NCBI GenBank assembly: GCA_003167555.1
Contig: PMSN01000011.1
Location: forward strand, 558,001-622,000
Origin: Spartobacteria bacterium
GTDB lineage: Bacteria > Verrucomicrobiota > Verrucomicrobiia > Chthoniobacterales > UBA10450
Length of the DNA stretch: 64,000 nt
Direction: 5' to 3'
This document shows, piece by piece, positions 13,997-29,451 of this stretch (positions are counted from its first letter, which is position 1; each line of letters opens with the position of its first letter). The notes under the pieces are model-generated. The model did no database searches and had not been told where the DNA came from. It was given only the letters and a program-made list of their open reading frames with translations. A program made the translations under genes and the position numbers.

Positions 13997-14081
13997 GTTC
14001 CCCAAGCCAGAAACTCGTCCCTTCGCCACTCCGGTGTTTTTCATAGCCGAATCACCGTTCTTTTAGTATCAAGACTCCCCC

Positions 14082-16442
14082 GTGAAAGTTCGCGCGCTCT
14101 TCATCTCCTTCGCCGCCGGCCTGCTCCTCTGGCCCGCGCTCGCCGCAGCGCAGCTCACCGCCGCCGACGTGCAGACGATCATCAACCAGGCCGTCACGCG
14201 CGCCGTCCAGATTTCTCCGAACAGCGTCATCGCCGTGACTGATCGCGAAGGAAACGTCCTCGGCGTCTGGAACGTCCGCGGGGGCGAACCGGACGTCCTC
14301 GAAGTCTCGAGCTGCGTCTCAAAGGCCGGAACCGCCTCGTATTTGAGCAGCAATCAAAATGCGTTCACGTCGCGCACCGCCGGCTTCATCATCCAGCAGC
14401 ATTTTCCGCCCGGCGTCCGCAACACTTCGCCGGGGCCGCTCGTCGGCGTCGGTCTTTCGAATTTATTTTCGTCCGACATCAACAAATTCCGGGCGCCGGG
14501 GAGCATCATCAGCTTCAGCAGCCAGCCCGGCCTAACGATCAATCCCGTGTTCGGCACTTCCCTGGACGGTTCGCCGGGGGGTGTTCCGCTTTACAAGAAT
14601 GGAAAACTCGTCGGCGGCATCGGCGTGACAGGCGATGGCGTGCCAGGGCCGCTCGTCTTCCGTTCGCAGAATCCATTCACATTTATCCCGGGCTACGACG
14701 TAGACGAAGAGATCGCGCTCGCCGGGCAATTTGGATTTCGTCCCGACCGCTCGATTCAGGCCGACAACGTTTACATCAACGGCATCGCACTCGCCTACGT
14801 CTTGTCACCGGCGCCGGCGATCACTCCCATTGTCGTCACCGGCAATTCCGCTTCTGGCTACCCGGTCCAGGGTGCGCCGCCGCCATTTCCATATCCGATC
14901 GCGACCTTCGGTGGCGTTCAGGGCGAAATCCGCCAGCCGATTGTGGGCGATCCGCTGCCGGGAACGATCAACGGCCAGCCGCGCCTGACGGCCGCGGAAG
15001 TTGCGAGCATCATCTCCTTCGCCGCCGATCGCGCGCGGACAACGCGCGCCGGGATTCGTTTGCCCATCGGCGTGCCGATGCAGGTCTTCATCACCGTCGA
15101 AAATAATCCGAACGATCCGACGAAAAAGCCGACCGTCCTCGGCGCGTTCCGCACGGGTGAGGCCACGCTTTTCAGTTGGGACGTGGCGGTGCAAAAGGGA
15201 CGCACCGCCGTTGGCTTCTCGAACAATTCGTTCGCGGTTTCCACGCGCACCGTCGGCTTCCTCGCCCAAACGAAGTATCCGCCCGGGCTCGACGTGCAGG
15301 ACCCTGGTCCGTACTACGGATTGCAGGAACAGTTCTCTGGGTTCCGGCGCTCGGCGCTCCCTGACTACATCCTCGATTCATCCGGCACCGACGCGCGATT
15401 TCCAAATGGCATCACGATTTTCCCGGGAGGCTTTCCGCTCTATCGCAACGGCCAACTCATCGGCGCGATCGGCATCAGCGGTGACGGCGTTGATCAGGAC
15501 GACATCGTCAGCGTCTCCGGCACGCACGATTTTCTCGCTCCGATCGCGATCCGGGCCGATCAATTCGCCTACCTCGGCGCGCGTTTGCCGTACGCCAAAT
15601 TTCCGCGCGATCCGGATGGGACCGATGGAAGCGTCGAGATCGCACCCTTCAGTGTCGTAGCGGAAAAATTGGCGAACATTTCGACGCGCGTCGCCGCCGG
15701 CACCGGAGAGGGCCAGCTCATCGGCGGCTTCATCATCACCGGAAAAGAATCGAAGAAGGTGATCATTCGCGCGATCGGCCCATCACTCAACCAGTACGGC
15801 GTCGGCTCCGCGCTTTCCGATCCCATTCTGGAATTGCACGATCAATCCGGTGCGATCATCGCCACGAACGACAACTGGCGGGACACGCAGCAGGCCGAGA
15901 TCATGGCCTCTACCATTCCGCCGACGAACGATTTGGAATCCGCCATCGTCCAAACGCTCCCGCCCGGTTCTTACACGGCGGTCGCCAGCGGAAAAAACGG
16001 CGCGGTCGGCACGGCGCTCGTGGAAGTTTACGACTTGAGCGCGACGACCGATTCGACCCTCGCGAATATCAGCACGCGCGGCGCGGTCGGTCCTGAGAGC
16101 GACGTGATGATCGGCGGCTTCATCATCAGCGGCAGCAGCGGCGTCACCCGAGTTCTGGTCAGGTCCGTCGGTCCGTCGCTTGTTTCCTCAGGAATAAACA
16201 ACGCCATGCCCGATCCGATGCTGGAGCTGCGCGACGTCAACGGCACCCTCATCGCCGCGAACGACAATTGGAAGGACGGCCCGCAACAAGAAATCGAAGA
16301 AACAACCCTCGCGCCCACGAACGATCTCGAATCCGCCATCGTGACCACGCTTCCTTCCGGACCCTACACCGCCGTCATCCACGAGAAAAACGGCGCCAGC
16401 GGCGTCGGCCTCTTCGAAGTTTACAATCTCCAGGATCCCTGA
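14082..16442 (+). CDS. Secreted duplicated HbpS/GlcG-like heme-binding-type protein with two LANIST C-terminal modules
   Basis: 786 aa. Signal peptide: MKVRALFISFAAGLLLWPALAAAQ. Two copies of a GlcG/HbpS-like domain (the family holding heme-degradation protein HbpS) follow: about 25-220 (LTAADVQTIINQAVTRAV, SVIAVTDREGNVLGVW) and about 305-500 (LTAAEVASIISFAADRART, KKPTVLGAFRTGEATLFS). Each ends with a glycine-rich LYRNG/LYKNG-LVGGIGVTGDGV segment. Residues about 530-785 hold two copies of a beta-rich module (LANISTR, IGGFII, VRSVGPSL, NDNW, LESAIV) that I know as a common C-terminal unit on verrucomicrobial secreted proteins, function unknown. The protein is exported or surface-located. Single-domain HbpS-like proteins bind heme or sense redox; a role here is inference. 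The upstream divergent neighbour is the decaheme operon. Confidence 0.75.
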   Translation: MKVRALFISFAAGLLLWPALAAAQLTAADVQTIINQAVTRAVQISPNSVIAVTDREGNVLGVWNVRGGEPDVLEVSSCVSKAGTASYLSSNQNAFTSRTAGFIIQQHFPPGVRNTSPGPLVGVGLSNLFSSDINKFRAPGSIISFSSQPGLTINPVFGTSLDGSPGGVPLYKNGKLVGGIGVTGDGVPGPLVFRSQNPFTFIPGYDVDEEIALAGQFGFRPDRSIQADNVYINGIALAYVLSPAPAITPIVVTGNSASGYPVQGAPPPFPYPIATFGGVQGEIRQPIVGDPLPGTINGQPRLTAAEVASIISFAADRARTTRAGIRLPIGVPMQVFITVENNPNDPTKKPTVLGAFRTGEATLFSWDVAVQKGRTAVGFSNNSFAVSTRTVGFLAQTKYPPGLDVQDPGPYYGLQEQFSGFRRSALPDYILDSSGTDARFPNGITIFPGGFPLYRNGQLIGAIGISGDGVDQDDIVSVSGTHDFLAPIAIRADQFAYLGARLPYAKFPRDPDGTDGSVEIAPFSVVAEKLANISTRVAAGTGEGQLIGGFIITGKESKKVIIRAIGPSLNQYGVGSALSDPILELHDQSGAIIATNDNWRDTQQAEIMASTIPPTNDLESAIVQTLPPGSYTAVASGKNGAVGTALVEVYDLSATTDSTLANISTRGAVGPESDVMIGGFIISGSSGVTRVLVRSVGPSLVSSGINNAMPDPMLELRDVNGTLIAANDNWKDGPQQEIEETTLAPTNDLESAIVTTLPSGPYTAVIHEKNGASGVGLFEVYNLQDP

Positions 16443-16453
16443 CGCTCGCCGCC

Positions 16454-16595: not shown

Positions 16596-17111
16596 ATGAT
16601 CCGAATCATGCGTGCATGGAAAAATTCAATAGGACGAGGTTTTGCCATTATCTCGGTGCTAGCGGTGATGGGGGCGGGGTTGGTCGTGATGCAGACAGGG
16701 AATGCCGTCACCCCCGCTCCCAATACGACCCCCGGCGCCAGGCGACACATCATGCTCCCGAGCCGAACGGACTCATTGCCCTTCAGTGATGGAGTGTTAG
16801 TCGGCGATACTCTCTATCTGGCGGGACGCATCGGCATCGATCCTCAAACCGGCAAACCTCCGGAGGATGTCGAGAAAGAGATCCGGCTCCTGCTCGACGG
16901 AATGAAGGCTACTCTGAAGGAAGCCGAAATGACGATGGACGACCTGGTCTCCGTGCAAGTCTTTTGCCCGGACCTCTCCTTGTACGAAAAGTTCAACGAG
17001 ATTTATCGCACTTACTTCAGCAAGAATTTTCCCGCCCGCGCCTTCATCGGGTCCGGACCGCTTCTGCGTGGAGGACGTTTCGAAGCGCAGGGGATCGCGG
17101 TCCGGCGCTGA
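16596..17111 (+). CDS. Membrane-anchored or exported RidA (YjgF/UK114) family protein
   Basis: 171 aa. Residues 14-34 (GRGFAIISVLAVMGAGLVVM) form a signal anchor or signal peptide, unusual because most RidA proteins are cytosolic. The RidA fold runs from about 55 to the end: GVLVGDTLYLAGRIGIDPQTG, NLLDGMKATL-type helix, DLVSVQVFCPDLSLYEKFNE, then FPARAFIGSGPLLRGGRFEA. The Arg in PARAF is at the place of the Arg that binds the imine carboxylate in deaminating RidA, so enamine/imine hydrolysis is possible. The gene converges with the kinase-CHAT gene; the stop codons lie 2 nt apart with no room for a terminator. Confidence 0.8.
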   Translation: MIRIMRAWKNSIGRGFAIISVLAVMGAGLVVMQTGNAVTPAPNTTPGARRHIMLPSRTDSLPFSDGVLVGDTLYLAGRIGIDPQTGKPPEDVEKEIRLLLDGMKATLKEAEMTMDDLVSVQVFCPDLSLYEKFNEIYRTYFSKNFPARAFIGSGPLLRGGRFEAQGIAVRR

Positions 17112-17113
17112 AA

Positions 17114-20100
17114 CTACGGCTTGCCTTGCGAGCTCATGATGAATGGGCCGGCGAGACGGACAGCGGCGAGTAAGCCCTTTTCTTTCCGGAGCTTTACGAG
17201 CCAGTCGCGCTGCGTGTCGGCGAGTGCTTGCGGTGCGTTGCCGGTTTTGAATGCAGCGTCATAAAAATCGAGCATGATCTGCACAGTGATCTCGTCACTG
17301 ATTGGCCAAAGGGTCATCAAAAGATTTTGTGTGCCGGCTTGAACGAAGCCGCGGCGAAGACCCATCACGCCTTCACCTGCTTTAGCTTCACCGCTACCAG
17401 TGTCGCAAGCGGAGAGTACGACGAGCCACGTTCCATCGAGTTTCAATCCACCGACTTCTTCGGCGGTGACGATCCCGTCATTCTCAGTCGGAGGTACCTC
17501 GCCTTTCGCCCATGCATGGAGCGTCGTTTGCGCTCCGGCTACCGCGAGTCCACTTCGGTGCATCGGATTAACTAACTTGCCCTTTGGAATGTCAGCAGTA
17601 GTTCGCGACAAACCTTTTGGTGATGGACCAAGGTCAATTTCGGGAAGGAAAAATCCGTGAGTGGCCAAATGCAGAATGCGCGGCGAATTCACCTTGCGCA
17701 GCTCTGCTTCAGTGGCGTGTTCGCCGAGATTCAGATGAGCCTGCCAGCCTGACTTCTTCGCGCACTCTTCCAGTTTCGCCGATTCTCTGGCCGTGCCCGG
17801 TAACTCTGGAAGCGAAATGGATTGCAGCTCCCGTATCTCGATAGATCGAAAGGTAACCGTGTTTGTTTTGTTTTCTGCTAGAGTAACTCCATCACTCTTT
17901 GCCGCGAAATCAGGGTTCGCGAAGACTTGCATCGATGTTTTCGCGGCCGCGACCGGTTTGGTTTCTCGCAACAAGTCGCGACCGCTGGCGACATAGCGGA
18001 TGGAAAACTCTTCGCCGAGGAAACGGTCGTCAGGCGTTAACAATGTCGCGAACGAAACGAAGTTCAATTCGGCATCGGGGCTTACGACCATTGTCTTGAT
18101 GCCCGCGGGACACTCTTTCACGATCGGCGCCCAAACTTCCTCATCCAGCTTCTTAAGCACGGCGCTCAAAGCCGCCTCATTCGTTTGCCCACGAACGGAT
18201 TTTTTATACAACAGGATCTTCTTTTCAATCTCCGCCGCGGCGCCCAGCGGAATCCATTTCGGTTCGCTTCCAGAGGCAATCACGACCGCGCCATACCGCG
18301 GCTCGAATTTGTTCTTGCCCTGGTAACTCTCGTAGCGCAGGAACTCGATCAACGCCGCACCCGGGCCAAGCGCCGTCTGCACTTGAGCTACAGTCAGACT
18401 CAACGCGCGTCGTGCACGACCAAGCCCCGCGACCTGTCGCCCCAAACCTCCCTCGAGTTCCTCTACTTTCCGGGCGAGTTCCTTCTTTTCGGTCTCACGC
18501 TTCCTGGCCACCGTTTCTGAAATATCCTTCGGCACTTGCAATAGCAATTGCATGAGCTGCTGCTTGGCTGCGCGAAGTTGATTAATCGTTTCGCGCTGCC
18601 GGGGATCGGTGCTGGTTTCGGCTACGAGCCGGTCTTCCAATAATGAGTCGAGGACTATGCCTTTTCTTCTTAGAATGAGCTGGGCGAGTTCCGGACCGTT
18701 CCCGAGAATGGCGGGCAAGGTATAGGGCCGGGTTGTTTTCTGAAAAGCGAGACGCTGCTGCTCGGACGTAAAGGATAGGATGTTCGATAAGGTTTTCTCT
18801 TCCGCCCGCTGCGCCAGTTGGGCCAGGCGTAACTGTTCCTGTGCGTTGCCCATGTCTCCATAGAGCAGCGCAAGATTGTTGAGACTTGCCGCAGTGTTTG
18901 GATGGTCCGGGCCGAGCACTTTCTCGATGATCTTGAGGGAGCGTTGATAGAGTGGCTCGGCCTTGGCGTAATCGCCTGTTCGATGGTAAAGCCCGGCTAG
19001 ATTATTGAGGCTTAATGCTGTATCAGGGTGTTCCGGGCCGAGCGCTTTTTCGCGAATTTGAAGGGAACGTTGATAGAGTGGTTCAGCTTTGGCGTAGTCG
19101 CCCATCTTGGTATAAAGCTCCGCCAGGTTGTTGAGGCTTAAGGCGGTGCTTGGATGTTCAGGGCCCAGCACTTTTTCAAAGATCTTAAGTGAACGTTGGT
19201 AGAGCGATTCGGCTTTGGCGTAATCGCCCATCTCTCGATAAAGCTCTCCGAGGTTGTTGAGGCTTAAGGCGGTGCTCGAATGTTCCAGGCCGAGCACTTT
19301 CTCCCGGATACCTAACGACCGTTGATAAAGTGGTTCAGCCTTGGCATAGTCACCAAGGCTTACATAAAAGGCCGCCAAGCTATTGAGGCTGTTGGCGGTG
19401 CTGGGGTGTTCCGAACCGAGCGCTTTCTCAATGATTGCTAGCGAGCGTTGATAGAGAGGCTCAGCCTTGGCGTAGTCGCCCATGCTATCATAAAGGTCTG
19501 CCAGGTTATGGAGAGTGTTGGCGGTGTTTGGGTGTTCCGGGCCGAGCGCTTTCTCGTTGATCTTGAGTGAGCGCTGCAAGAGCGGCTCAGCCCTGGCGTA
19601 GTCTCCCATCTCCTTATAAACCTCGGCTAGGTTATTGAGGCTCGTCGCAGTGAGTTGGTGTTCCGGACCCAGCGTTTTCTCGTTGATGGCCAGGGAGTGT
19701 TGATAGAGAGGCTCAGCCTTGGCGTAGTCGCCCATGCTATCGTAAAGTTCGGCCAGATTGTTGAGGCTGTTCGCGGTGTTGGGATGTTCTGGGCCAAGGG
19801 TTTTCTCCCGGATTTTTAGGGAGCGTTGATAGAGTGGTTCGGCCTTGGCATAGCTACCCATGCTCACGTAAAGGCCTGCCAGGTTGTTGAGGCTTGTCGC
19901 AATGTCTGGATCTTCCGGTCCGAGCGCCTTCTCGCGGATCTTCAGTGAGCGCTGATAGAGCGGTTCAGCCTTGGCGTAATCGCCCATCTTATCATAAAGC
20001 GTCGCCAGGTTATTGAGGCTATTCGCAGTGTCCGGATGTTCCGGACCGAGAGCTTTCTCGCGAATGTTTAGCGAACGTTGATAGAGCGGTTCAGCCTTGG

Positions 20101-23100
20101 CGTAGTAACCCATCTTATCATAAAGCGCGGCCAAATCGTTGAGACTGTCCGCGGTCTTTGGGTCTTCGGGGCCGAGAACTTTCTCGCGGATTTTTAGCGA
20201 GCGCTGATAGAGCGGCTCGGCCTTCGCGTAGTCGCCGGAATCACTATAGAAGTTTGCGAGATTGTTGATGGTCAAGGCAGTGTTTAGGTGCTCCGGTCCG
20301 AAGGTCTTCTCGCGAATGTCCAAAAGCTGAAGAGCAAAAGGAACTGCCTCTGCATATTTACCGGCCTGATAAAGTTTCTTTATCTCCTGCTCGAGCTTAT
20401 CAGCCTCGGAAAGATATGGCGTCACGTCGAGCGCGCGGTCTTCGACCAACAACCCAACTTTCCCCGCCGTGAAGCCCTCAACGCGCATTGTCTTGCCGTC
20501 GCGCTTGACCTCGATCCAGCCACCTGGAAAAGTGTTGAAGCTCCAGTCATAAGCGCTGCGGATTGGATTGCCATTGGCCGAGAGAAGCTCATCGCCCGCT
20601 TTTAGCTCGGCCGCCTTGGGCTGTTCCGGCGCTACGCCTGTAACGATTACGCGCACTCCGTCGAGCGCAGTTCCGTCGCCGCGTTTGTGCGTGACACTCT
20701 GCAATTTTCCTTCAGCAAATTTCGCTTCGCGCACGCTGAAGCCGACGAGCTTCTCGTTGAATCCGGTTTCGTAAATCCGCTGCGGGCGATCGATCTCATC
20801 GAAATCCTCTTCCTTTCGCGCGCAAAAAACTCCACTGGAGAGGGAGCCGATCGGCTGGCGCTTCACGTCGCACGCCTGGCGAACCTGCCGTTTGCGCGCA
20901 CCTGTCTTATGCCATTCAGCGTCGATGCGAAAATCGGGAGATCCCGCCGATTCCGCGCATCCCAGTTGCCACGTGAGAATGACGCGCCCATTTTCATCGT
21001 AGGTCTCATCGATCGCCGCATAGGGAAGTCCGGCATCTACGGCGAGCTGTCCTTTTTCATTTTCAAAGCGCAACACGCTTCGGCGCAAGCGTCCTTGCGA
21101 ATCGTACTCCGGCTCGCTCACATCGCGGTAGTAGCGGAATCGCGTCGGGTCCTCGTCCTCTCTCGTTTGTCGCCGCAGGGCGCCGTTCGGATCGAATTCA
21201 GTGATCATCCGATGATAGCCGGCCTTGCAGTAGGTCTTCGCGCCCGCAGCGTCGAAGTAAGTCTCTTCCCAACTGAAACCGTCTCGACTAGACTTGTAGG
21301 CGCGGCGTTTGATGAGGTAGCCAATCTCTCCGGCTGATGCCCGGCCTTCCGCGTCGAGGTACTTTTCCTCGGTCACATTGCCGCTTGCATCATGAAGCAT
21401 GGCCGTGCGCCATTTGATTGTGCCCGCGAACTGAAGATCAGATGGATGGCCGAGTTCATCGTATGCGACCTTCCATTGAAAAAACGGGGACGTGGCGCCG
21501 TCCAGGCCGATCTTCAAAAACTTGTGTCCGATAATTTCGCCGCGTTCGTTGCGTTGCGTTTCCTGCACAGTCCAGTCAATTCCGCGCGCGGGCTTTCCAT
21601 CCGCGCCGAGTCGAACAAGGCCGATCAAATTACCCAATGCGTCGTAATCGATGGTCATCGCGGATACACCGTTCCACGCAGCTGGCTTTCCTGCGCCATC
21701 GCACATGTCGATGCGAACGACGCGGCCCGCCGGGCCCCACGTCATCGCGAGCGAGATCTGTCCCGCGTTGTTTGCCGCCGGTTGCCCATCTTGGCCAAGA
21801 TTGAAAAGACGCACAATCCTCCCGGCCGCGTCGCGCTCGAGCTTGTATCCGTAAACACCTTCTCCGTTTGCCGCCGGCTTGCCCTCGCCGTTGAAGAAAC
21901 TCACCTTCACGTCACGGCCGTTCGCGTCGCGCTCGATTTCCATTTGCGAAGCGCCGCTGGTGCTGGACTTCGCGAATCCCCGGAGATTAGCGAAGCGGGC
22001 CGGGATAACCACGGGAGCGTGCGGTGAAGACACCGGTCGATCATAAATAATGCGCCAGATCGGGTTGCCGTTTCGATCCAGCGCCGTCGCTTCGCTTGCC
22101 GTCTCGCCATTGTAGGAGAACTCAATCCTTGTGCTTTCCGGCGCTTTTTCGGCGTAAGGCTGCGTTCCCATTAATCCTTCGAGATAAATGGGAATCACCT
22201 CGGGATAGATCGGCCGGAGCACCGCCGGGTTTCCGCGAGAATTCAACACTTCCACGCGAGTGATCGGTCCGATCCTACCGCGGCGTGTCAGACGCAGGCT
22301 CACGCCGTGATGCGAAAGCGCCTTCTCATCCATCTTCAAGATCGGTTCAAATCCGCCCCTCACGTAATCGACTGCGGCCGCGTATTCCACATGGGGTCGC
22401 TGATAGAATTCCCATTGCCAGAGACGCTGGCCCGCCGCGGCCAGGGCGAGGGCGAGCGCACCTCCCGCGACGAAGCGCCAGGGATGGCGCTTGATCCATT
22501 TCACCGTGCGCACCGCCGTGGTCGGCGGCCGGGCCAGGATCGATTCGTCCTCGAGAAACCGGCGCAAATCTTCCGCAAACGCCGCGGCGCTTGAATAGCG
22601 GTCGCGCGGTTCCTTCTCCAGACATCTCAGGCAAATCGTCTCGAGATCGCGAGGGATGCCCGGCCGATGCCACGCGGGAGAGACCGGATCTTCCGTGATC
22701 ACGCGCACCATGATGGCGGTTTCGCTTTCTTCCGGCAGGAACGGCGGACGGCCCGCGAGAATTTCGTAGAGGATCGCACCTAACGAATAGATATCCGCCG
22801 CCGTTCCTACGCCACGACTCGTTCCCTTGGCTTGTTCTGGCGCCATGTAGGTCGGTGTGCCGATCACCACGCCGGAGAGCGTGAGCGAGCTGTCGCCGCT
22901 CAGGCGTTTCGCAATTCCGAAATCGGTCACCTTCGGCACGCCATCCGGATCCAACAGCACATTCGCGGGCTTCATGTCGCGATGGACCACTCCGTTCTGG
23001 TGCGCGAAATGCAGCGCGCGCGCGACGCTGATCAACAATTGCGCCGCCTCCCGCGCTGGAAGCATTCCGGCGCGAAGCCGGTCCGCGAGCGAACCGCTCT

Positions 23101-23494
23101 CGACATATTCCATCGAAAAAAACGGCGCGCCTTGATCCTCTCCCACCTCATAAATTTGGACGATGTTCGTGTGATGCAGACTCGCGGCCGTCTCTGCCTC
23201 CGCCCGGAAACGCGCCAGCTCGTCCGGCCCGTAATGACCGGTGAGCATCTTGAGCGCGACGAGGCGGTTCAGCTTTTTTTGCCGGGCGCGAAAGACCACG
23301 CCCATGCCGCCGCGTCCGAGTTCGCCTTCGACCTGGTAGTCTCCAAAGATGGGACGACCCGCTTTCGGCAGCGGCGACGGCGGAATGGAAGCGTTTGAAT
23401 CCGCGTTCACTTTCAAACGACCTTGATCATTTCCTGCCCCTTCGGCCAGCAGAGTATCTCGCTTCAACGACAAAGTAACGGCGTCGACGGCCAT
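17114..23494 (-). CDS. Ser/Thr kinase-TM-PDZ-TPR-CHAT protease-like fusion protein
   Basis: 2126 aa from the ATG at 23494 (MAVDAVTLSLKRD); an upstream ATG at 23581 would translate DNA belonging to a neighbouring duplication. Kinase domain about 51-320: GELGRGGMGVVF, Lys82 (VALK), HRDMKPAN with Asp173, DFG with Asp191, APE. A membrane helix at about 345-362 follows (WRFVAGGALALALAAAG). Next comes a 600-residue extracytoplasmic region of YD-like repeats (GRIVRLFNLGQDGQPAANN, NLIGLVRLGADGKPA). A PDZ-like domain follows (AELKAGDELLSANGNPIRSA), then 12 regular 42-residue TPRs (YAKAEPLYQRSL...LGPEHP). The C-terminal CHAT domain has His1946 (HLATHGF) and Cys2030 (LSACDTG), the caspase-like dyad. TPR-CHAT proteins are proteases in bacterial death pathways; the fused kinase suggests phospho-control. 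Substrate and trigger are unknown. Confidence 0.88.
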   Translation of the reverse strand: MAVDAVTLSLKRDTLLAEGAGNDQGRLKVNADSNASIPPSPLPKAGRPIFGDYQVEGELGRGGMGVVFRARQKKLNRLVALKMLTGHYGPDELARFRAEAETAASLHHTNIVQIYEVGEDQGAPFFSMEYVESGSLADRLRAGMLPAREAAQLLISVARALHFAHQNGVVHRDMKPANVLLDPDGVPKVTDFGIAKRLSGDSSLTLSGVVIGTPTYMAPEQAKGTSRGVGTAADIYSLGAILYEILAGRPPFLPEESETAIMVRVITEDPVSPAWHRPGIPRDLETICLRCLEKEPRDRYSSAAAFAEDLRRFLEDESILARPPTTAVRTVKWIKRHPWRFVAGGALALALAAAGQRLWQWEFYQRPHVEYAAAVDYVRGGFEPILKMDEKALSHHGVSLRLTRRGRIGPITRVEVLNSRGNPAVLRPIYPEVIPIYLEGLMGTQPYAEKAPESTRIEFSYNGETASEATALDRNGNPIWRIIYDRPVSSPHAPVVIPARFANLRGFAKSSTSGASQMEIERDANGRDVKVSFFNGEGKPAANGEGVYGYKLERDAAGRIVRLFNLGQDGQPAANNAGQISLAMTWGPAGRVVRIDMCDGAGKPAAWNGVSAMTIDYDALGNLIGLVRLGADGKPARGIDWTVQETQRNERGEIIGHKFLKIGLDGATSPFFQWKVAYDELGHPSDLQFAGTIKWRTAMLHDASGNVTEEKYLDAEGRASAGEIGYLIKRRAYKSSRDGFSWEETYFDAAGAKTYCKAGYHRMITEFDPNGALRRQTREDEDPTRFRYYRDVSEPEYDSQGRLRRSVLRFENEKGQLAVDAGLPYAAIDETYDENGRVILTWQLGCAESAGSPDFRIDAEWHKTGARKRQVRQACDVKRQPIGSLSSGVFCARKEEDFDEIDRPQRIYETGFNEKLVGFSVREAKFAEGKLQSVTHKRGDGTALDGVRVIVTGVAPEQPKAAELKAGDELLSANGNPIRSAYDWSFNTFPGGWIEVKRDGKTMRVEGFTAGKVGLLVEDRALDVTPYLSEADKLEQEIKKLYQAGKYAEAVPFALQLLDIREKTFGPEHLNTALTINNLANFYSDSGDYAKAEPLYQRSLKIREKVLGPEDPKTADSLNDLAALYDKMGYYAKAEPLYQRSLNIREKALGPEHPDTANSLNNLATLYDKMGDYAKAEPLYQRSLKIREKALGPEDPDIATSLNNLAGLYVSMGSYAKAEPLYQRSLKIREKTLGPEHPNTANSLNNLAELYDSMGDYAKAEPLYQHSLAINEKTLGPEHQLTATSLNNLAEVYKEMGDYARAEPLLQRSLKINEKALGPEHPNTANTLHNLADLYDSMGDYAKAEPLYQRSLAIIEKALGSEHPSTANSLNSLAAFYVSLGDYAKAEPLYQRSLGIREKVLGLEHSSTALSLNNLGELYREMGDYAKAESLYQRSLKIFEKVLGPEHPSTALSLNNLAELYTKMGDYAKAEPLYQRSLQIREKALGPEHPDTALSLNNLAGLYHRTGDYAKAEPLYQRSLKIIEKVLGPDHPNTAASLNNLALLYGDMGNAQEQLRLAQLAQRAEEKTLSNILSFTSEQQRLAFQKTTRPYTLPAILGNGPELAQLILRRKGIVLDSLLEDRLVAETSTDPRQRETINQLRAAKQQLMQLLLQVPKDISETVARKRETEKKELARKVEELEGGLGRQVAGLGRARRALSLTVAQVQTALGPGAALIEFLRYESYQGKNKFEPRYGAVVIASGSEPKWIPLGAAAEIEKKILLYKKSVRGQTNEAALSAVLKKLDEEVWAPIVKECPAGIKTMVVSPDAELNFVSFATLLTPDDRFLGEEFSIRYVASGRDLLRETKPVAAAKTSMQVFANPDFAAKSDGVTLAENKTNTVTFRSIEIRELQSISLPELPGTARESAKLEECAKKSGWQAHLNLGEHATEAELRKVNSPRILHLATHGFFLPEIDLGPSPKGLSRTTADIPKGKLVNPMHRSGLAVAGAQTTLHAWAKGEVPPTENDGIVTAEEVGGLKLDGTWLVVLSACDTGSGEAKAGEGVMGLRRGFVQAGTQNLLMTLWPISDEITVQIMLDFYDAAFKTGNAPQALADTQRDWLVKLRKEKGLLAAVRLAGPFIMSSQGKP
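18850..20290. repeat. 126-bp tandem repeats encoding 12 TPRs
   Basis: Direct repeats with a 126-bp period inside the kinase-CHAT gene. Each unit encodes 42 residues with the pattern SLNNLAxLYxxMGDYAKAEP then LYQRSLxIxEKxLGPEHPxTA. The units are unusually alike at DNA level, pointing to recent unit amplification or gene conversion. Confidence 0.85.
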
Positions 23495-25915
23495 TCGACA
23501 GGAGTTGCGACATCGCGTGAGGAAATTACCATTTCGTGCGCGGATGTGAATACAGACGCGTTCGCACATGCCTGACCGCAAACCACACGCGTCGCCACCG
23601 CCTTACGAATCGGCGCGGTCGGATCGACCAGCTTGCCTTTCGGGATGTCTTCGATCTTGCCAAGAACGTTTTTCGAATTACCCAGCTCACTCTCTGGTAA
23701 GAAAAAACCATGTGTTGCGAGGTGAAGAATGCGCGGAGAGTCCACCCGCCGAAGCTCTGCTTCAGTGGCAGCGGATCCAAGAAACACCGTGACCTTTCGA
23801 TTCGCCCTCTCGATGAGCTTTTGCAATCCAGTTGCTTCTGCCGCGGTTCCTGGAAGTGGAAACAGCAAAAGGTTTTGCAAGCCTCGCATTTCCATCAAGC
23901 GCACTGACCCTGCACTTGTTGTCGATTGTGCCGAGTTGGGAACGAGAGTCTTCCCTTCAAAATCCGGATCCGCGAAGATAACTGTTCCAAGATTACCGCC
24001 GGATTTCTTCCCCCCGAGCAAATCGCGTCCGCTTGCCACGTAACGAATCGAATATCGTTCGGCGAGAAATTTGTCATTGGAATCGGTGAGCGTAGTGAAC
24101 GAGACGAAATTAAGTTCACCATCAGGGCTGATTGCCACATTGGTGGTTTCCGCAGGAAGAACCTTCTCGATGGGTGCCCAAATCTGCGCATGCAAAGCGT
24201 GCAGCACACCAAGCAAAGTAGCTTCGTCTTTCTCTCCGTGGGCACATTCTTGATACAGCCGTATATTCTTTTCAATTCCAACGGCGCTGCCCAGCGGGCA
24301 CCAAACCGGCTTACCACCGGGAATAATTAGAATGGCTCCATAGCACCACTCCCATTTGTTTTTGCCGAGATAATCGTTGTAACGCGCCAGTTCTATCAAC
24401 GCCTCGTTCTTCCCGAGGCCCGCCGTACTTGCTCAACTGTAATGCTCAGCGCGCGCCTCGCTTTTCCCAGGCCGGCAACTTGCCTCGCGAGTCCGGCCTC
24501 GAGTTCATCTACTCGATTGGAAATCCGTTTCTTCTCGGTATCCCGTCGTTCTCGCGCGTCTTCAACAGGATATTTCGGTGCTTCCAACGACACCTGCATA
24601 AGACGCTGTCTGGCAATAAGAAGTTCTGCGATAATCTCACGCTGCTCCGGTTTCTCGCTGGCTTGAGAAATAAGCCGATCTTCCAGCAGCGAATCGAGAA
24701 CAACGCCTTTGCGACGGAGAATGGTCTGGGCTAGAACCTGGGACATGTTCAACCGAGCGGGAAGAGAATAGGGATTGACCGTCAGTTGAAAAACCAACCG
24801 CTGTTGCTCAGAGGTAAACGACAGAACATCGGCAAGATGGTTCTCTTCGCCTAGGTTGACACGCGAAGCCAGGTCCGCGGCCTTATCCGTTTTACCGTTA
24901 TCAAGATAGCGGTACGCCAAATTCATTAGGGCATTCGTTGTTTGCGGATGGTCGGACCCCAGAGTGTGTTCGCTGATCCTTATCGAACGGCTATAGAACA
25001 ACTCAGCCTCGGCAAAGTTTTCCATTTGAGTGTAGAGCATGCCCAAATTGTTTAGGATTACAGCGGTATCTGGGTGATCTTTGCCGAGCACGGATTCTTC
25101 AGGGCTCGCTGGAAAAGTGGCTCCGCTTTGGCAAAGTCTCCCTTGTGCAGATATAGCGTTCCGAGGCTACTGAGGAGAGGGGCAATGTTCGGGTGCTCGA
25201 CGCCCAAAGCCTTCTCATCGATCCTCAGAGCGCGCAAGCAGAGCGGTTCAGCTTTAGCGTAATCGCCCATATTGTCGTAGAGGCCTGCAAGGTTGGCGCA
25301 ACTGGCGGCTGTGTCAGGGTGTTCCGGGCCCGCTTTCTCTTCCGAAATTGCTAGGGCACGTGCAAAGGTGGCTTCTGCTTTGGCGTATTTTCCGCTCGCC
25401 GTGTAAACCAATCCTAGGTTGTTGAGAGTAACCGCAGTGTTTTGACTATCGCTGCTTTCAGTTGTTCTATCGATTCTCAATACCCGATCATAAAGCAGTT
25501 CAGCCTTAGTATATGCGCCCATGTGCTGGTAAAGGTCCGCTAGGTTATTAAGGGTCGCGGCCGTATGGACATCGTTCGAGCCGAGGGTTGTCTCGAAGAT
25601 GTTCAAGGCACGCTGGAATAGCGGCTCAGCTTTTGCGTATTGGCCCGCCGCATCATAAAGCTTCGCTAATTTGTCGAGAACCAAAGCCGTGGCGGGATTC
25701 TCTGCCCCCATCACCTTTTCACAGCGATCCAGGAGCTTGATGGCTAGTGGCAGCGCTTCAGCATATCTGCCTTCGCGCTCGAGTTGAACGACTTGCCGAT
25801 CAATCGTCTCCACATCTTGATCATCGGACGGTAGCGTCTCGCCTCCGAGAGCAGAGAGGCTGACAAGGGCGGCGATTGCCATGGCTACTAATACGTGACG
25901 TTTCTTCGCGCGCAT
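23464..25915 (-). pseudogene. Decayed TPR-CHAT paralogue of the upstream kinase-CHAT gene
   Basis: Three reading frames together give one protein. The first (from ATG 25915, signal peptide AMAIAALVSLSALGGE) carries about six 42-residue TPRs and breaks near 25095. The next (about 25091-24396) carries two more TPRs, then the SFTSEQQRLVFQ and RRKGVVLDSLLEDRL linker. A second break near 24405 leads to the CHAT part (LIELARYNDYLGKNKWEW, HLATHGFFLPE). Both breaks look like 1-nt shifts. CHAT homology stops after IPKGKLVDPTAPIR (about 23630), so the catalytic Cys segment (LSACDTG in the intact paralogue) is missing. The remaining codons run antisense into a copy of the MFS 5' end. Unlike its neighbour it has no kinase. 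Two frameshifts could be assembly errors, but the truncation could not. Confidence 0.85.
23537..23626 (+). repeat. 90-bp direct repeat, left copy: remnant of an MFS gene 5' end
   Basis: It aligns with 26051-26140 at roughly 78% identity with one 1-nt gap. It includes an ATG at 23568 followed by MPDRKPHASPPPYESARSD, matching MPDHEPHAPPPAYEAARSE at the true MFS start. After codon 20 the MFS homology ends and the truncated CHAT paralogue begins on the other strand. Confidence 0.8.
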
Positions 25916-26050
25916 GAAAACCTCGCCATACAGATTGAAAAGATCGAGGATTGCCTTCAATCCAAATGAAGCTCGGGTTCACCCTGTCTTCACTGATAGC
26001 GATTGCGCAAGCGTAGGTTGCGGCGCGAACTAACGCTTCTACAATCTACG

Positions 26051-26140
26051 TGCGCGTGTGTGAACGCAGACGCGTTCATCACATGCCTGATCACGAGCCG
26101 CACGCGCCGCCACCTGCCTACGAAGCCGCGCGCTCGGAAC
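26051..26140 (+). repeat. 90-bp direct repeat, right copy, spanning the MFS start
   Basis: Partner of 23537-23626. It covers the leader (TGCGCGTGTGTGAACGCAGA) and the first 20 codons of the intact MFS gene. The copies bracket the TPR-CHAT pseudogene in the same orientation. Confidence 0.8.
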
Positions 26141-27501
26141 GTGCCACCACCGCCGCAGGAACACTCGAGCGGTCCGAGGGAAAACATGATCCGTATGCGG
26201 CCTTTCGTTTTCCGGCCTTCAGCTTTTACACGGCGGGAAATCTCGTCTCGGTCGTCGGGCGCCAGATGCTGACGGTGTCGCTCGAATGGGAAATTTATGC
26301 GCGCACTCATTCGGCCACGGCGCTCGGACTTGTGGGGTTGATGATCGCGCTCCCGGTCGTGCTCCTCTCGCTGCCGGCCGGCCACATCGCCGACCGGTTC
26401 CCGCGCAAACGGATCGTGCTCGTGACGCAGGCGCTCAGCGCGATCTGCTCGCTCGCCCTGGCGTGTGTTTCCTGGCAGCACCTTGCGATTCCGAACTGGC
26501 CGGTCCTACAAAAAGGAAACCACGTTCTCTATTCGATCGCTTCGATCTTCGAGCGCCAGACGCATTTCCATTTCGACGATCTTTCCATCCCGCTGATCTA
26601 TTTAATCCTTCTCATCTCCGCGACCGGCCGGACGTTCGGTTGGGCGGCGCGCAGTTCCTTTTTCCCGCAGCTCGTGCCGCGCGATTCTTTCGCGAACGCG
26701 GTCACTTGGAACAGCAGCGTCTTTCAGATTGGCTCGGTCGTCGGCCCGGCGATCGGCGGTTTGCTGATCGTGCGCACCGGATTTCCTTTCATCTATGTGC
26801 TCGATGCGATCTGCGCGTTTTCGTTTTTCTTGTTGGTCCTGCCGATTCGCAGCAGCGATCGCGGCAGCAGCAGTGAGCGCAACGCGTGGCGCAGCCTGAA
26901 GGAAGGACTTCGTTTCATGATGAGCAAGAGGATCGTGCTGGCCACGATCACGCTCGATATGTTCGCGGTCTTTCTCGGTGGCGCGACGGCGCTCCTGCCG
27001 ATTTTCGCAGATCAGATTTTGCACTGCGGCCCGATTGGGCTCGGCTGGATGCGGGCGGCCCCCGGGATCGGCGCGTTCATCATGGCGCTGGTGATCGCAT
27101 ATCTGCCGCCGATGCGGCACGCGGGCAAAACGCTTCTCTGGTGCGTGACAGGGTTCGGCCTCGCCACCATCGTCTTTGGGTTCTCGCCGTATCTCTGGCT
27201 TTCGCTCGCGGCGCTGTTCATGACCGGCGTGTTCGACAGCGTGAGTGTCGTGGTGCGGCACACGTTGCTGCAATTGGTCACGCCCGATTCGATGCGCGGC
27301 CGGATTTCCGCCGTGAACAATATTTTTATCGGGACATCGAACGAGCTGGGCGCGTTAGAGTCGGGATTGACGGCGGCCCTCTTCGGTCCGGTGATCTCGG
27401 TCGTGGCCGGAGGCGTCGGAACGATTCTGGCGGTACTTGGCGTGTCGTTCGTCTGGCCAGAGACACGCAAGATCGGCGCGCTCGACAAGAATTTGCGGTA
27501 G
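26083..27501 (+). CDS. MFS transporter (enterobactin-exporter/MFS_3 type)
   Basis: 472 aa from ATG 26083, the start shared with the duplicated 5' fragment; a GTG 33 nt upstream is possible. About 12 membrane helices follow a polar 45-residue N-terminus, beginning PAFSFYTAGNLVSVVGRQML. The MFS loop motif after helix 2 is GHIADRFPRKR, and an Arg-rich loop recurs in the second half. An insert of about 40 residues (NWPVLQKGNHVLYSIASIFE) lies after helix 4. The family covers drug and siderophore exporters. The substrate is unknown. It is followed within 10 nt by a nitrilase-family gene on the same strand, so the two are probably co-transcribed. Confidence 0.85.
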   Translation: MPDHEPHAPPPAYEAARSERATTAAGTLERSEGKHDPYAAFRFPAFSFYTAGNLVSVVGRQMLTVSLEWEIYARTHSATALGLVGLMIALPVVLLSLPAGHIADRFPRKRIVLVTQALSAICSLALACVSWQHLAIPNWPVLQKGNHVLYSIASIFERQTHFHFDDLSIPLIYLILLISATGRTFGWAARSSFFPQLVPRDSFANAVTWNSSVFQIGSVVGPAIGGLLIVRTGFPFIYVLDAICAFSFFLLVLPIRSSDRGSSSERNAWRSLKEGLRFMMSKRIVLATITLDMFAVFLGGATALLPIFADQILHCGPIGLGWMRAAPGIGAFIMALVIAYLPPMRHAGKTLLWCVTGFGLATIVFGFSPYLWLSLAALFMTGVFDSVSVVVRHTLLQLVTPDSMRGRISAVNNIFIGTSNELGALESGLTAALFGPVISVVAGGVGTILAVLGVSFVWPETRKIGALDKNLR

Positions 27502-27510
27502 TTTCCCGTC

Positions 27511-28305
27511 ATGAAAGTTGCCGCTGCCCAAATCGCCTGCTCGCTCGGTGACATCGAGGCGAACGTTCGCAAGATGCGCGACTTCTGTTCGCGCGCGAAA
27601 GAAGCAGGCGCCGAGCTGATCGTCTTTCCCGAGACCGCTGACACCGGCTACTCGATGCCGATCATTCAAACGCATGCGAAACCGTGGACCGAAGGGCCCG
27701 TTCCCGCGCTTCAGAGAATGGCGAAGGAATTCTCGCTCGCAATTGTGAGCGGCGTTTCAGAACGCGTCGACGCGGCCATCTACAATTCTCAAGTCTTCAT
27801 CGATGCGAATGGCAGCATCGCGGCCAGCTATCGGAAGACACATCTCTTTGCGGTCGCGCCCGGGGATGAGAGCGTGTGCTTCGCGCCGGGCGACGCTTTC
27901 GCGAGCGTCGCGATGGGCGGATTCCGCTTCGGATTGAGCATCTGTTACGATCTTCGGTTTCCCGAGGTGTATCGAGCGCTCGCGATCGAACACGACGCGA
28001 ACGTTCTGATTAATTCCTCGGCCTGGCCGTTCCCGCGCGTCGAACATTTGCGGACGCTGGCCATCGCGCGCGCCATCGAAAACCAGAGTTACATGATTCT
28101 ATCGAATCGCGTCGGTGTGGACGATGGAGTTTCCTTATGCGGCATGTCGGCCATCATCGATCCGTCTGGGGTAACGCTGGCGCTGGCGTCGACGGATCGT
28201 GAAGAGCTGATCGTGGCTGAGATATCGGAAGAGGCGATTGCCACGGTCCGCGACAAGATGCCGGTGTTCGCGCACCGGCGGCGCGAACTGTACGGGGATC
28301 AATGA
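27511..28305 (+). CDS. Carbon-nitrogen hydrolase (nitrilase superfamily)
   Basis: 264 aa. The catalytic triad is visible: E41 (IVFPETADTGYS), K109 (YRKTHLF) and C145 (SICYDLRFPE). Length and motifs fit the NIT2/omega-amidase or deaminated-glutathione amidase branch, which hydrolyse 2-oxo acid amides or deaminated glutathione in the cytosol. FPE after the Cys and the short C-terminus support that branch over plant-type nitrilases. It starts 9 nt after the MFS stop, suggesting one transcript. It is followed by a convergent gene with a long palindrome in between. The exact substrate cannot be told from sequence. Confidence 0.85.
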   Translation: MKVAAAQIACSLGDIEANVRKMRDFCSRAKEAGAELIVFPETADTGYSMPIIQTHAKPWTEGPVPALQRMAKEFSLAIVSGVSERVDAAIYNSQVFIDANGSIAASYRKTHLFAVAPGDESVCFAPGDAFASVAMGGFRFGLSICYDLRFPEVYRALAIEHDANVLINSSAWPFPRVEHLRTLAIARAIENQSYMILSNRVGVDDGVSLCGMSAIIDPSGVTLALASTDREELIVAEISEEAIATVRDKMPVFAHRRRELYGDQ

Positions 28306-28328
28306 TTTTGTTCGTAGCCGTGACCTCC

Positions 28329-28496
28329 TGTCATCCTGAGCCGCGGAGACGGCGAAGGACCTCACAAGAGCTCAAAGATTACGCAAACGAAAAGCTGCGT
28401 GTTCGATGCGATCGCTTCGCGCAACGCGCCAGCGGTGAATCGCAGGCCCTTCTGCGACTGCGAGGTCCCTCGTCGTCTGCGCGACTCGGGATGACA
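28329..28496. repeat. Intergenic palindrome, TCATCCCGAG-type, long loop
   Basis: Arms TGTCATCCTGAGCCGCGGAG and CTCGGGATGACA (with GAGGTCCCTCGTCGTCTGCG) around an 85-nt loop. It fills the convergent gap between the nitrilase gene and a DUF6268-like gene; I see no gene in it. Confidence 0.7.
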
Positions 28497-28498
28497 CG

Positions 28499-29428
28499 CT
28501 AAAACGCCGCGTGCAGGGCCAGCATGCCGTACGGCACGCCACCGTCCTGGTGATAGCGGATGTCGGTGCGATGGAAATCGAAATTCCGGAAAGGAATGAA
28601 TCCACCCTCGGCGGAAACTTTAATGGCTGAAGTCAATTTCCAGTCGAGGCCGCCGCCGACCCGCACTTCTTCGTAGGTGATCGCGGCGTGATTCAACGCC
28701 GGGTTGCCGCGCAAGGTGCCGAACATTTTGTCTACGCGATAACTCGTGGCCCTGATGTCCGCGCCGGCATACAGCATCAGGCTGTTGCTCGCTTCGAATT
28801 CCAACCGCGGCGTTGGCGCGACCGCGTTCAGGACCCATTGCGGCGCAAATTTCCAGCGAATGCCGCCGCCCGGCAGCACGGGATATTTTCGGAATGCGTC
28901 GATACCCACGCCGAAGATAACCTGGAAGCCGGAATTGAAAATGTAAGTACCGCCAAGAACGACCGGGACGTTAAAGGTGCCCTGCCCGAAGTCATCGACA
29001 TCGGTTCCGTAAAATCCGGGTTGCGCTTCGAGCCGAATGAGAAACGAATCGGAGAATTCCGTGTCGAGACCGATGACGAGCGCGGTCGATTCGAGGACAT
29101 CGGGAATGGCGGCGTTGTGGGAGAAGCCAAACGAGTAGCGTTCCGCCTGCACGCCGAGCCGGAGAATCCCGATCTTGACGCGCGGCGTCAGGATGAAATG
29201 GAAGTGCACGTCGCTTTCATCGAAATCCTGGACGCGGAGTGTGCCGCGTTGCACGTCACCGCCGCCGACGTAGGTCGCGTCCGCATCGAACTCGAAGGAG
29301 ACGGAAGATTCCGACTCGACCAGCGCCACGTCCTTCGAGGAAGTGGAATTGACTTCGACTTGCACCGCGAAGAGGCGGATGGCGGCCAGGGAAAGGCAGA
29401 GGGCGACAAGCCGGATGGTGGTTTTCAT
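28499..29428 (-). CDS. Outer-membrane beta-barrel protein, DUF6268-like (copy 1)
   Basis: 309 aa. Signal peptide: IRLVALCLSLAAIRLFA. The mature part alternates amphipathic strands (FEFDADATYVGGGDVQRG, AITYEEVRVGGGLDWKL, FDFHRTDIRY) and ends in a terminal Phe (LHAAF). It is similar in length, strand pattern and end (Y/F-D-FxRxDxxY) to the gene at 32760. This fits the DUF6268 family of unknown-function barrels common in Verrucomicrobiota. Residues 29-35 (SSKDVAL) echo the SKDVAVEI units of the barrel at 11436. It follows a secreted hypothetical gene by 23 nt on the same strand. Confidence 0.7.
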   Translation of the reverse strand: MKTTIRLVALCLSLAAIRLFAVQVEVNSTSSKDVALVESESSVSFEFDADATYVGGGDVQRGTLRVQDFDESDVHFHFILTPRVKIGILRLGVQAERYSFGFSHNAAIPDVLESTALVIGLDTEFSDSFLIRLEAQPGFYGTDVDDFGQGTFNVPVVLGGTYIFNSGFQVIFGVGIDAFRKYPVLPGGGIRWKFAPQWVLNAVAPTPRLEFEASNSLMLYAGADIRATSYRVDKMFGTLRGNPALNHAAITYEEVRVGGGLDWKLTSAIKVSAEGGFIPFRNFDFHRTDIRYHQDGGVPYGMLALHAAF

Positions 29429-29451
29429 GGACGGAAAGGAGCAGATATTGC

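What the first reader, a model, noticed from the sequence alone, without database searches (positions are those of the whole stretch)
23464..26140. TPR-CHAT pseudogene bracketed by 90-bp direct repeats: trace of a CHAT-MFS gene-pair duplication
23537-23626 repeats 26051-26140, including the leader and the first 20 codons of the MFS gene (MPDRKPHASP against MPDHEPHAPP). At codon 20 the MFS homology stops and the CHAT paralogue, on the other strand, also stops, lacking its catalytic Cys. The simplest history is an ancient tandem duplication of a CHAT(-)/MFS(+) pair, followed by a deletion between the two converging 3' ends, then frameshifts. It implies CHAT and MFS were once a linked pair, so the MFS exporter may belong functionally with the CHAT protein.
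Basis: partly seen in the sequence, partly recalled or inferred. Interest (0 to 1): 0.7.

Follow-up and report, generated by a model that had tools for sequence, protein, structure and literature searches.

The report
Recombination scar beside a truncated TPR-CHAT gene
The 90-base repeat around a broken caspase-like gene is not an old tandem duplication but the end of a stretch of DNA that came from, or was exchanged with, a related soil bacterium: an ordinary gene-transfer scar, though a clear one.

Summary
The two MFS 5' ends (23535-23628 and 26049-26143) match in 76 of 96 columns, and the TPR-CHAT reading (25915-23629, minus strand) is frameshifted twice and cut before its catalytic Cys. 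The proposed history does not hold. Relatives show that the left copy is a xenologue, not a paralogue. Window 17118-23629 is colinear with same-genus genome G003, where kinase-TPR-CHAT stands head-to-head with an intact MFS gene and no second CHAT lies between. Third-position identity to G003 is 49-65% in flanking genes and 54% in the last 181 codons of CHAT, but 84% in the rest of the gene; the break near 17661 is sharp. The stub matches G003's MFS start better (84/96) than the window's own. MFS is single-copy in the genus and follows the species tree. The broken CHAT falls outside the local kinase-CHAT clade. Best reading: a G003-like kinase-CHAT/MFS fragment replaced resident DNA, anchored by homology inside CHAT and joined at a 9-11 base microhomology to the resident TPR-CHAT, which lost its 3' end. 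CHAT-MFS adjacency occurs in 2 of 30 relatives, so a functional pair is weakly supported.

The parts
17114..23494 (-). kinase - RHS/PDZ-like middle - TPR - CHAT gene (2126 codons), intact, with His and Cys motifs
   Evidence: 94% aa to G003, 72.6% to G001
17118..17661 (-). 3' end of that CHAT gene, at background divergence from G003 (third positions 97 of 181 identical)
17662..23629 (.). xenologous block: most of the kinase-TPR-CHAT gene, shared upstream region and MFS codons 1-20, like G003
   Evidence: 91.5% nt over 17118-23629 against 76-82% in flanks; third positions 1626 of 1944 identical; changepoint 17661-17663
23495..23567 (+). intergenic leader of the stub, G003 type
   Evidence: 66 of 72 bases (23495-23566) as in G003; 67% to the window's own MFS leader and start over 138 columns
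23568..23629 (+). truncated MFS 5' end (codons 1-20/21)
   Evidence: 56 of 63 bases (23567-23629) as in G003
23619..23629 (.). junction microhomology TCGGATCGACC, shared by the G003-type MFS start (Ser-Asp-Arg-Pro codons) and the CHAT Lys-Leu-Val-Asp-Pro codons (9-11 bases)
   Evidence: the CHAT part beyond Asp is inferred from the conserved N-P-M of homologues
23629..25915 (-). broken TPR-CHAT: signal-peptide-like start, TPRs, CHAT without its last ~150 codons and Cys; two frameshifts
26016..26082 (+). resident MFS leader, shared with G002, G004 and G006
26083..27501 (+). intact resident MFS transporter gene, vertical orthologue
16623..17114 (+). RidA/YjgF-type (Ribonuc_L-PSP) gene converging on the CHAT gene; present in G006 and G007, absent at this place in G003

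Best explanation
The direct repeats are two alleles of one MFS 5' end from two lineages, brought side by side by recombination. The resident locus carried RidA, a CHAT gene or genes including a signal-peptide TPR-CHAT, and MFS. An incoming fragment of G003-like DNA, reading from inside CHAT through the kinase start and shared upstream region to MFS codon 20, recombined with it. At one end it crossed over by homology in the conserved HLATHGFF part of CHAT (about 17661). At the other it joined by 9-11 bases of microhomology to the resident TPR-CHAT (23619-23629), removing that gene's 3' end and Cys. The remnant then gained frameshifts. Shown: the block, its left edge, the kinship of the stub, the vertical history of MFS, and the separate place of the broken CHAT. 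Inferred: that the window's lineage was the recipient, that one event made both ends, and that a second CHAT 3' end stood beside RidA.
For: Colinear block 17118-23629 to G003 at 91.5% nt, flanks 75.7-81.8%. Background third-position identity to G003 49-65% in six flank genes, against 1626/1944 inside the block and 97/181 left of it. Changepoint at 17661-17663, log-likelihood gain 34.8 against at most 8.9 in 200 shuffles. Stub nearer to G003 than to own MFS. Species and MFS trees agree and do not pair the window with G003. Broken CHAT outside the kinase-CHAT clade. Junction microhomology fits the G003-type MFS start (TCGGATCGACC) but not the window's own (TCGGAACGTGCC).
Against: Direction is not proven: the block could have moved the other way or come from a third lineage. 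The left edge could reflect a separate exchange in G003. Block divergence is uneven (second, weaker changepoint at 18023), so it may be a mosaic or vary in rate. The last 11 bases of the stub could be CHAT-derived, so the exact right edge is uncertain. The resident TPR-CHAT has no orthologue in any genome searched, so its original surroundings are unknown.
Confidence: 0.8

Rival explanations
1. Two steps: transfer first placed a complete G003-like kinase-CHAT/MFS pair beside the resident TPR-CHAT/MFS pair (a xenologous tandem), and a later deletion at the microhomology removed the rest of the first MFS and the 3' end of the TPR-CHAT.
Against: One more step; no intermediate with two MFS genes in the genus genomes.
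Confidence: 0.25
2. One reading: vertical tandem duplication of a CHAT/MFS pair, deletion between converging 3' ends, then frameshifts.
For: Repeat and truncation are real; CHAT-MFS head-to-head exists in G003 and G001; runs of neighbouring TPR-CHAT genes exist in the order (G447:C273).
Against: Stub allied with G003's MFS; MFS single-copy and vertical; CHAT copies far older than MFS copies; sharp identity block.
Confidence: 0.06
3. Assembly chimera of two strains at 17661 and 23629.
For: The genome is a 29-contig assembly and reads could not be seen; the left edge lies in a conserved motif.
Against: Needs two misjoins, one at only 9-11 shared bases; the kinase-CHAT frame stays open through 17661; no G003-identical DNA (91.5%, not 99%) is involved; frameshifts in the remnant point to real decay.
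Confidence: 0.05

Closest known systems
Homology-facilitated illegitimate recombination (HFIR), as summarised in PMC3240628 (passages read)
   Same: One end by homology, the other by illegitimate joining of foreign DNA.
   Different: Known mainly from transformation experiments; here inferred from one scar, with donor and direction unproven.
Displacement of T6SS effector genes leaving orphan genes in Vibrio cholerae, PMC5361080 (passages read)
   Same: Incoming module anchored by a conserved stretch displaces a resident gene and leaves a remnant; the authors propose an HFIR-like mechanism.
   Different: No effector-immunity pair is known here; a single locus with one remnant.
TPR-CHAT proteases such as Csx29 of Craspase (starts of abstracts seen in the listing)
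   Same: TPR joined to a CHAT caspase-like domain.
   Different: Here fused to a Ser/Thr kinase, or with a signal-peptide-like start; no CRISPR link was tested.

Membership tests
Tandem duplication of a CHAT/MFS pair | The two MFS 5' ends are each other's closest relatives, or belong to two paralogue clades | tested here: not met
Tandem duplication of a CHAT/MFS pair | The two CHAT copies are sisters with an age like that of the MFS copies | tested here: not met
HFIR-type foreign DNA integration | A foreign segment flanked by resident DNA | tested here: met
HFIR-type foreign DNA integration | One end in homologous sequence | tested here: met
   left edge inside the conserved CHAT motif, frame kept
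HFIR-type foreign DNA integration | Other end joined at short microhomology without wider homology | tested here: met
   23619-23629, 9-11 bases; part of the CHAT side inferred
HFIR-type foreign DNA integration | Both ends made in one event | not testable with these tools
   no intermediate genomes
CHAT peptidase family (PF12770), broken copy as an active member | CHAT domain with His-Cys dyad | tested here: not met
   broken copy keeps His, lacks Cys; the left kinase-CHAT gene has both

The most novel reading that the evidence does not exclude
The kinase-TPR-CHAT locus is a recombination-driven, fast-turnover locus in these soil Verrucomicrobia: whole sensor and protease parts are swapped between species on conserved anchors (the CHAT 3' domain and the MFS start), leaving CHAT 3' stumps in the genomes, much as Rhs or T6SS modules do. 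That would suggest a self/non-self or defence role.
Probability: 0.12. Interest if true: 0.5.

Novelty: new member of a known kind. Interest (0 to 1): 0.25.

Why it matters
It shows that a direct repeat around a pseudogene, which reads as a duplication in one genome, can be a transfer scar once relatives are compared. It gives a clear natural example of a homology-plus-microhomology junction in a group with few cultured members. It warns against inferring a functional CHAT-MFS pair from this locus.

Tried and rejected
Single in-lineage tandem duplication with ends in CHAT and at MFS codon 20 (my own first idea): rejected by the kinship of the stub and the age of the CHAT copies. The resident broken CHAT as the source of the 3' end at 17118-17661: unlikely, because that end is 92% aa to G003 where about 75% would be expected from the pattern of other pairs, and the 90-base overlap with the broken copy shows no excess identity (59 of 95 columns, against 60 of 100 for G003). 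A CHAT remnant upstream of MFS in G002, G006 or G007: none; other genes lie there. A defence label: the PADLOC hits shown for the kinase gene (25 of 35 families) are to its kinase and TPR parts, and of the three broken TPR-CHAT pieces two give none and one gives three weak hits in its TPR part, so this was not pursued. Promoter scan of 23400-26200: no consensus site in either leader. A first MFS tree with a mis-extracted G004 row was discarded and rebuilt. For the CHAT tree I dropped 9 rows by hand (fragments, duplicates, partial hits).

Full report
Observation. The repeat and the truncated TPR-CHAT are as described. The two 5' ends match in 76 of 96 columns. The TPR-CHAT is read in three frames (25061-25960, 24399-25091, 23629-24399, minus strand) and ends at KLVDP, short of the Cys motif. 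The breaks near 25095 and 24405 do not lie in long homopolymers.

Relatives. The window lies in a 4.2-Mb, 29-contig genome. Seven other genomes of the genus are held; six have the MFS gene at 85-88% aa and one, G005, lacks an orthologue. I fetched the DNA around MFS for 30 relatives. Kinase-TPR-CHAT stands head-to-head with MFS in G003 (77 bases between the matches) and G001 (kinase match 387 bases from the MFS match), and was not seen in the other 28. Of these, G004 (493 bases) and G032 (1174 bases) had too little upstream sequence to tell. G011 has a kinase match (46% aa) 1250 bases upstream, without a CHAT match in the 5173 bases available. G002, G006 and G007 have other genes there. MFS hits in further genomes (G016 and those of other families) were not examined for neighbours.

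The block. Compared with G003, the window is 78.0% identical over 14038-16443 and 75.7% over 26052-29430, but 91.5% over 17118-23629, in register for 6512 bases. Third-position identity is 49-65% in six flank genes, 97 of 181 over the last part of CHAT, and 1626 of 1944 over the rest of the gene. The best single changepoint is 17661 (all sites) or 17663 (third positions), log-likelihood gain 34.8 against at most 8.9 in 200 shuffles. It falls in the codons of the conserved HLATHGFF motif. The high identity continues through the intergenic region (66 of 72) and the MFS stub (56 of 63) to 23629, where homology ends.

The stub is a xenologue. Over the 140 bases from 23495 the stub region is 89% identical to G003 and 67% to the window's own MFS start. 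The window's own leader is most like those of G002 and G006 (78%, 77%). A tree of two flanking proteins (2080 columns) gives three branches: the window; G003 with G002 and G004 (87/90); and G006, G007 and G001 (100/100). The MFS tree has a compatible shape. MFS is therefore most simply vertical and single-copy, the window's own included. The kinase-CHAT gene (94% aa to G003 against 68-88% for neighbours) is the exception.

The broken TPR-CHAT. In a tree of 31 rows it lies outside the clade of the kinase-CHAT genes of the window, G003 and G001 (98/97), in an unresolved fork with sequences of other families. It is 50-55% identical to those genes. Its CHAT part has no closer relative among 58 genomes, 213 of the order or 384 sampled from the class; outside the genus the best long matches are 42-49%, apart from a 46-residue piece at 63% in G014. 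Its GC3 is 51-58%, against 71-78% for ordinary neighbours and 64% for the kinase-CHAT gene. It has a signal-peptide-like start (my reading) and no kinase. It is an old, separate CHAT gene, so it cannot have been duplicated together with an MFS gene that differs only at genus level.

The junction. TCGGATCGACC (23619-23629) fits both the G003-type MFS codons for Ser-Asp-Arg-Pro and the CHAT codons for Leu-Val-Asp-Pro, 9-11 bases depending on how much of the lost CHAT sequence is inferred from the conserved N-P-M. The window's own MFS reads TCGGAACGTGCC there, so the join most likely formed with a G003-type allele. A homologous edge on one side and a microhomology edge on the other is the pattern of homology-facilitated illegitimate recombination (PMC3240628, passages). 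An HFIR-like displacement that leaves orphan genes has been proposed for Vibrio T6SS loci (PMC5361080, passages). Whether one event or two made the junction cannot be decided, nor can the direction be proved. I favour the window's lineage as recipient, because it is the one with a truncated MFS fragment.

Function. The intact kinase-TPR-CHAT gene has a Ser/Thr kinase, weak RHS-repeat and PDZ matches, many TPRs and a CHAT domain with both catalytic motifs, so a signal-controlled protease is likely, by inference. The remnant is probably inert. Since MFS is kept in relatives that lack CHAT next to it, MFS most likely has its own role.

Verdict. A real feature and an ordinary kind of event, with a corrected history: transfer and replacement rather than duplication.

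Noticed in passing
window 17114-23494: Very large fusion: Ser/Thr kinase, weak RHS-repeat and PDZ matches in the middle, long TPR array, CHAT with His and Cys. Unusual architecture, possibly a signal-controlled protease.
   Followed up: partly
L143 8968-9207; L144 7367-7670; L146 1402-1859; G002:C84:137117-137245: Short CHAT 3'-end remnants stand alone elsewhere in G003, G001, G014 and G002: signs of repeated CHAT gene loss, or simply the best-conserved part surviving detection.
   Followed up: partly
G447:C273 838-15493 (L181 covers part): Four TPR-CHAT matches in a row on one contig of the same order.
   Followed up: no
window 16623-17114: RidA/YjgF-type gene converges on the CHAT gene with a few bases between stops; present in G006 and G007, missing in G003, where CHAT ends directly beside the next gene.
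   Followed up: partly
window 18023: Second, weaker changepoint inside the block: the 360 bases next to the left edge are nearly identical to G003 (3% third-position mismatches against 17% further on), so the block may itself be a mosaic.
   Followed up: no
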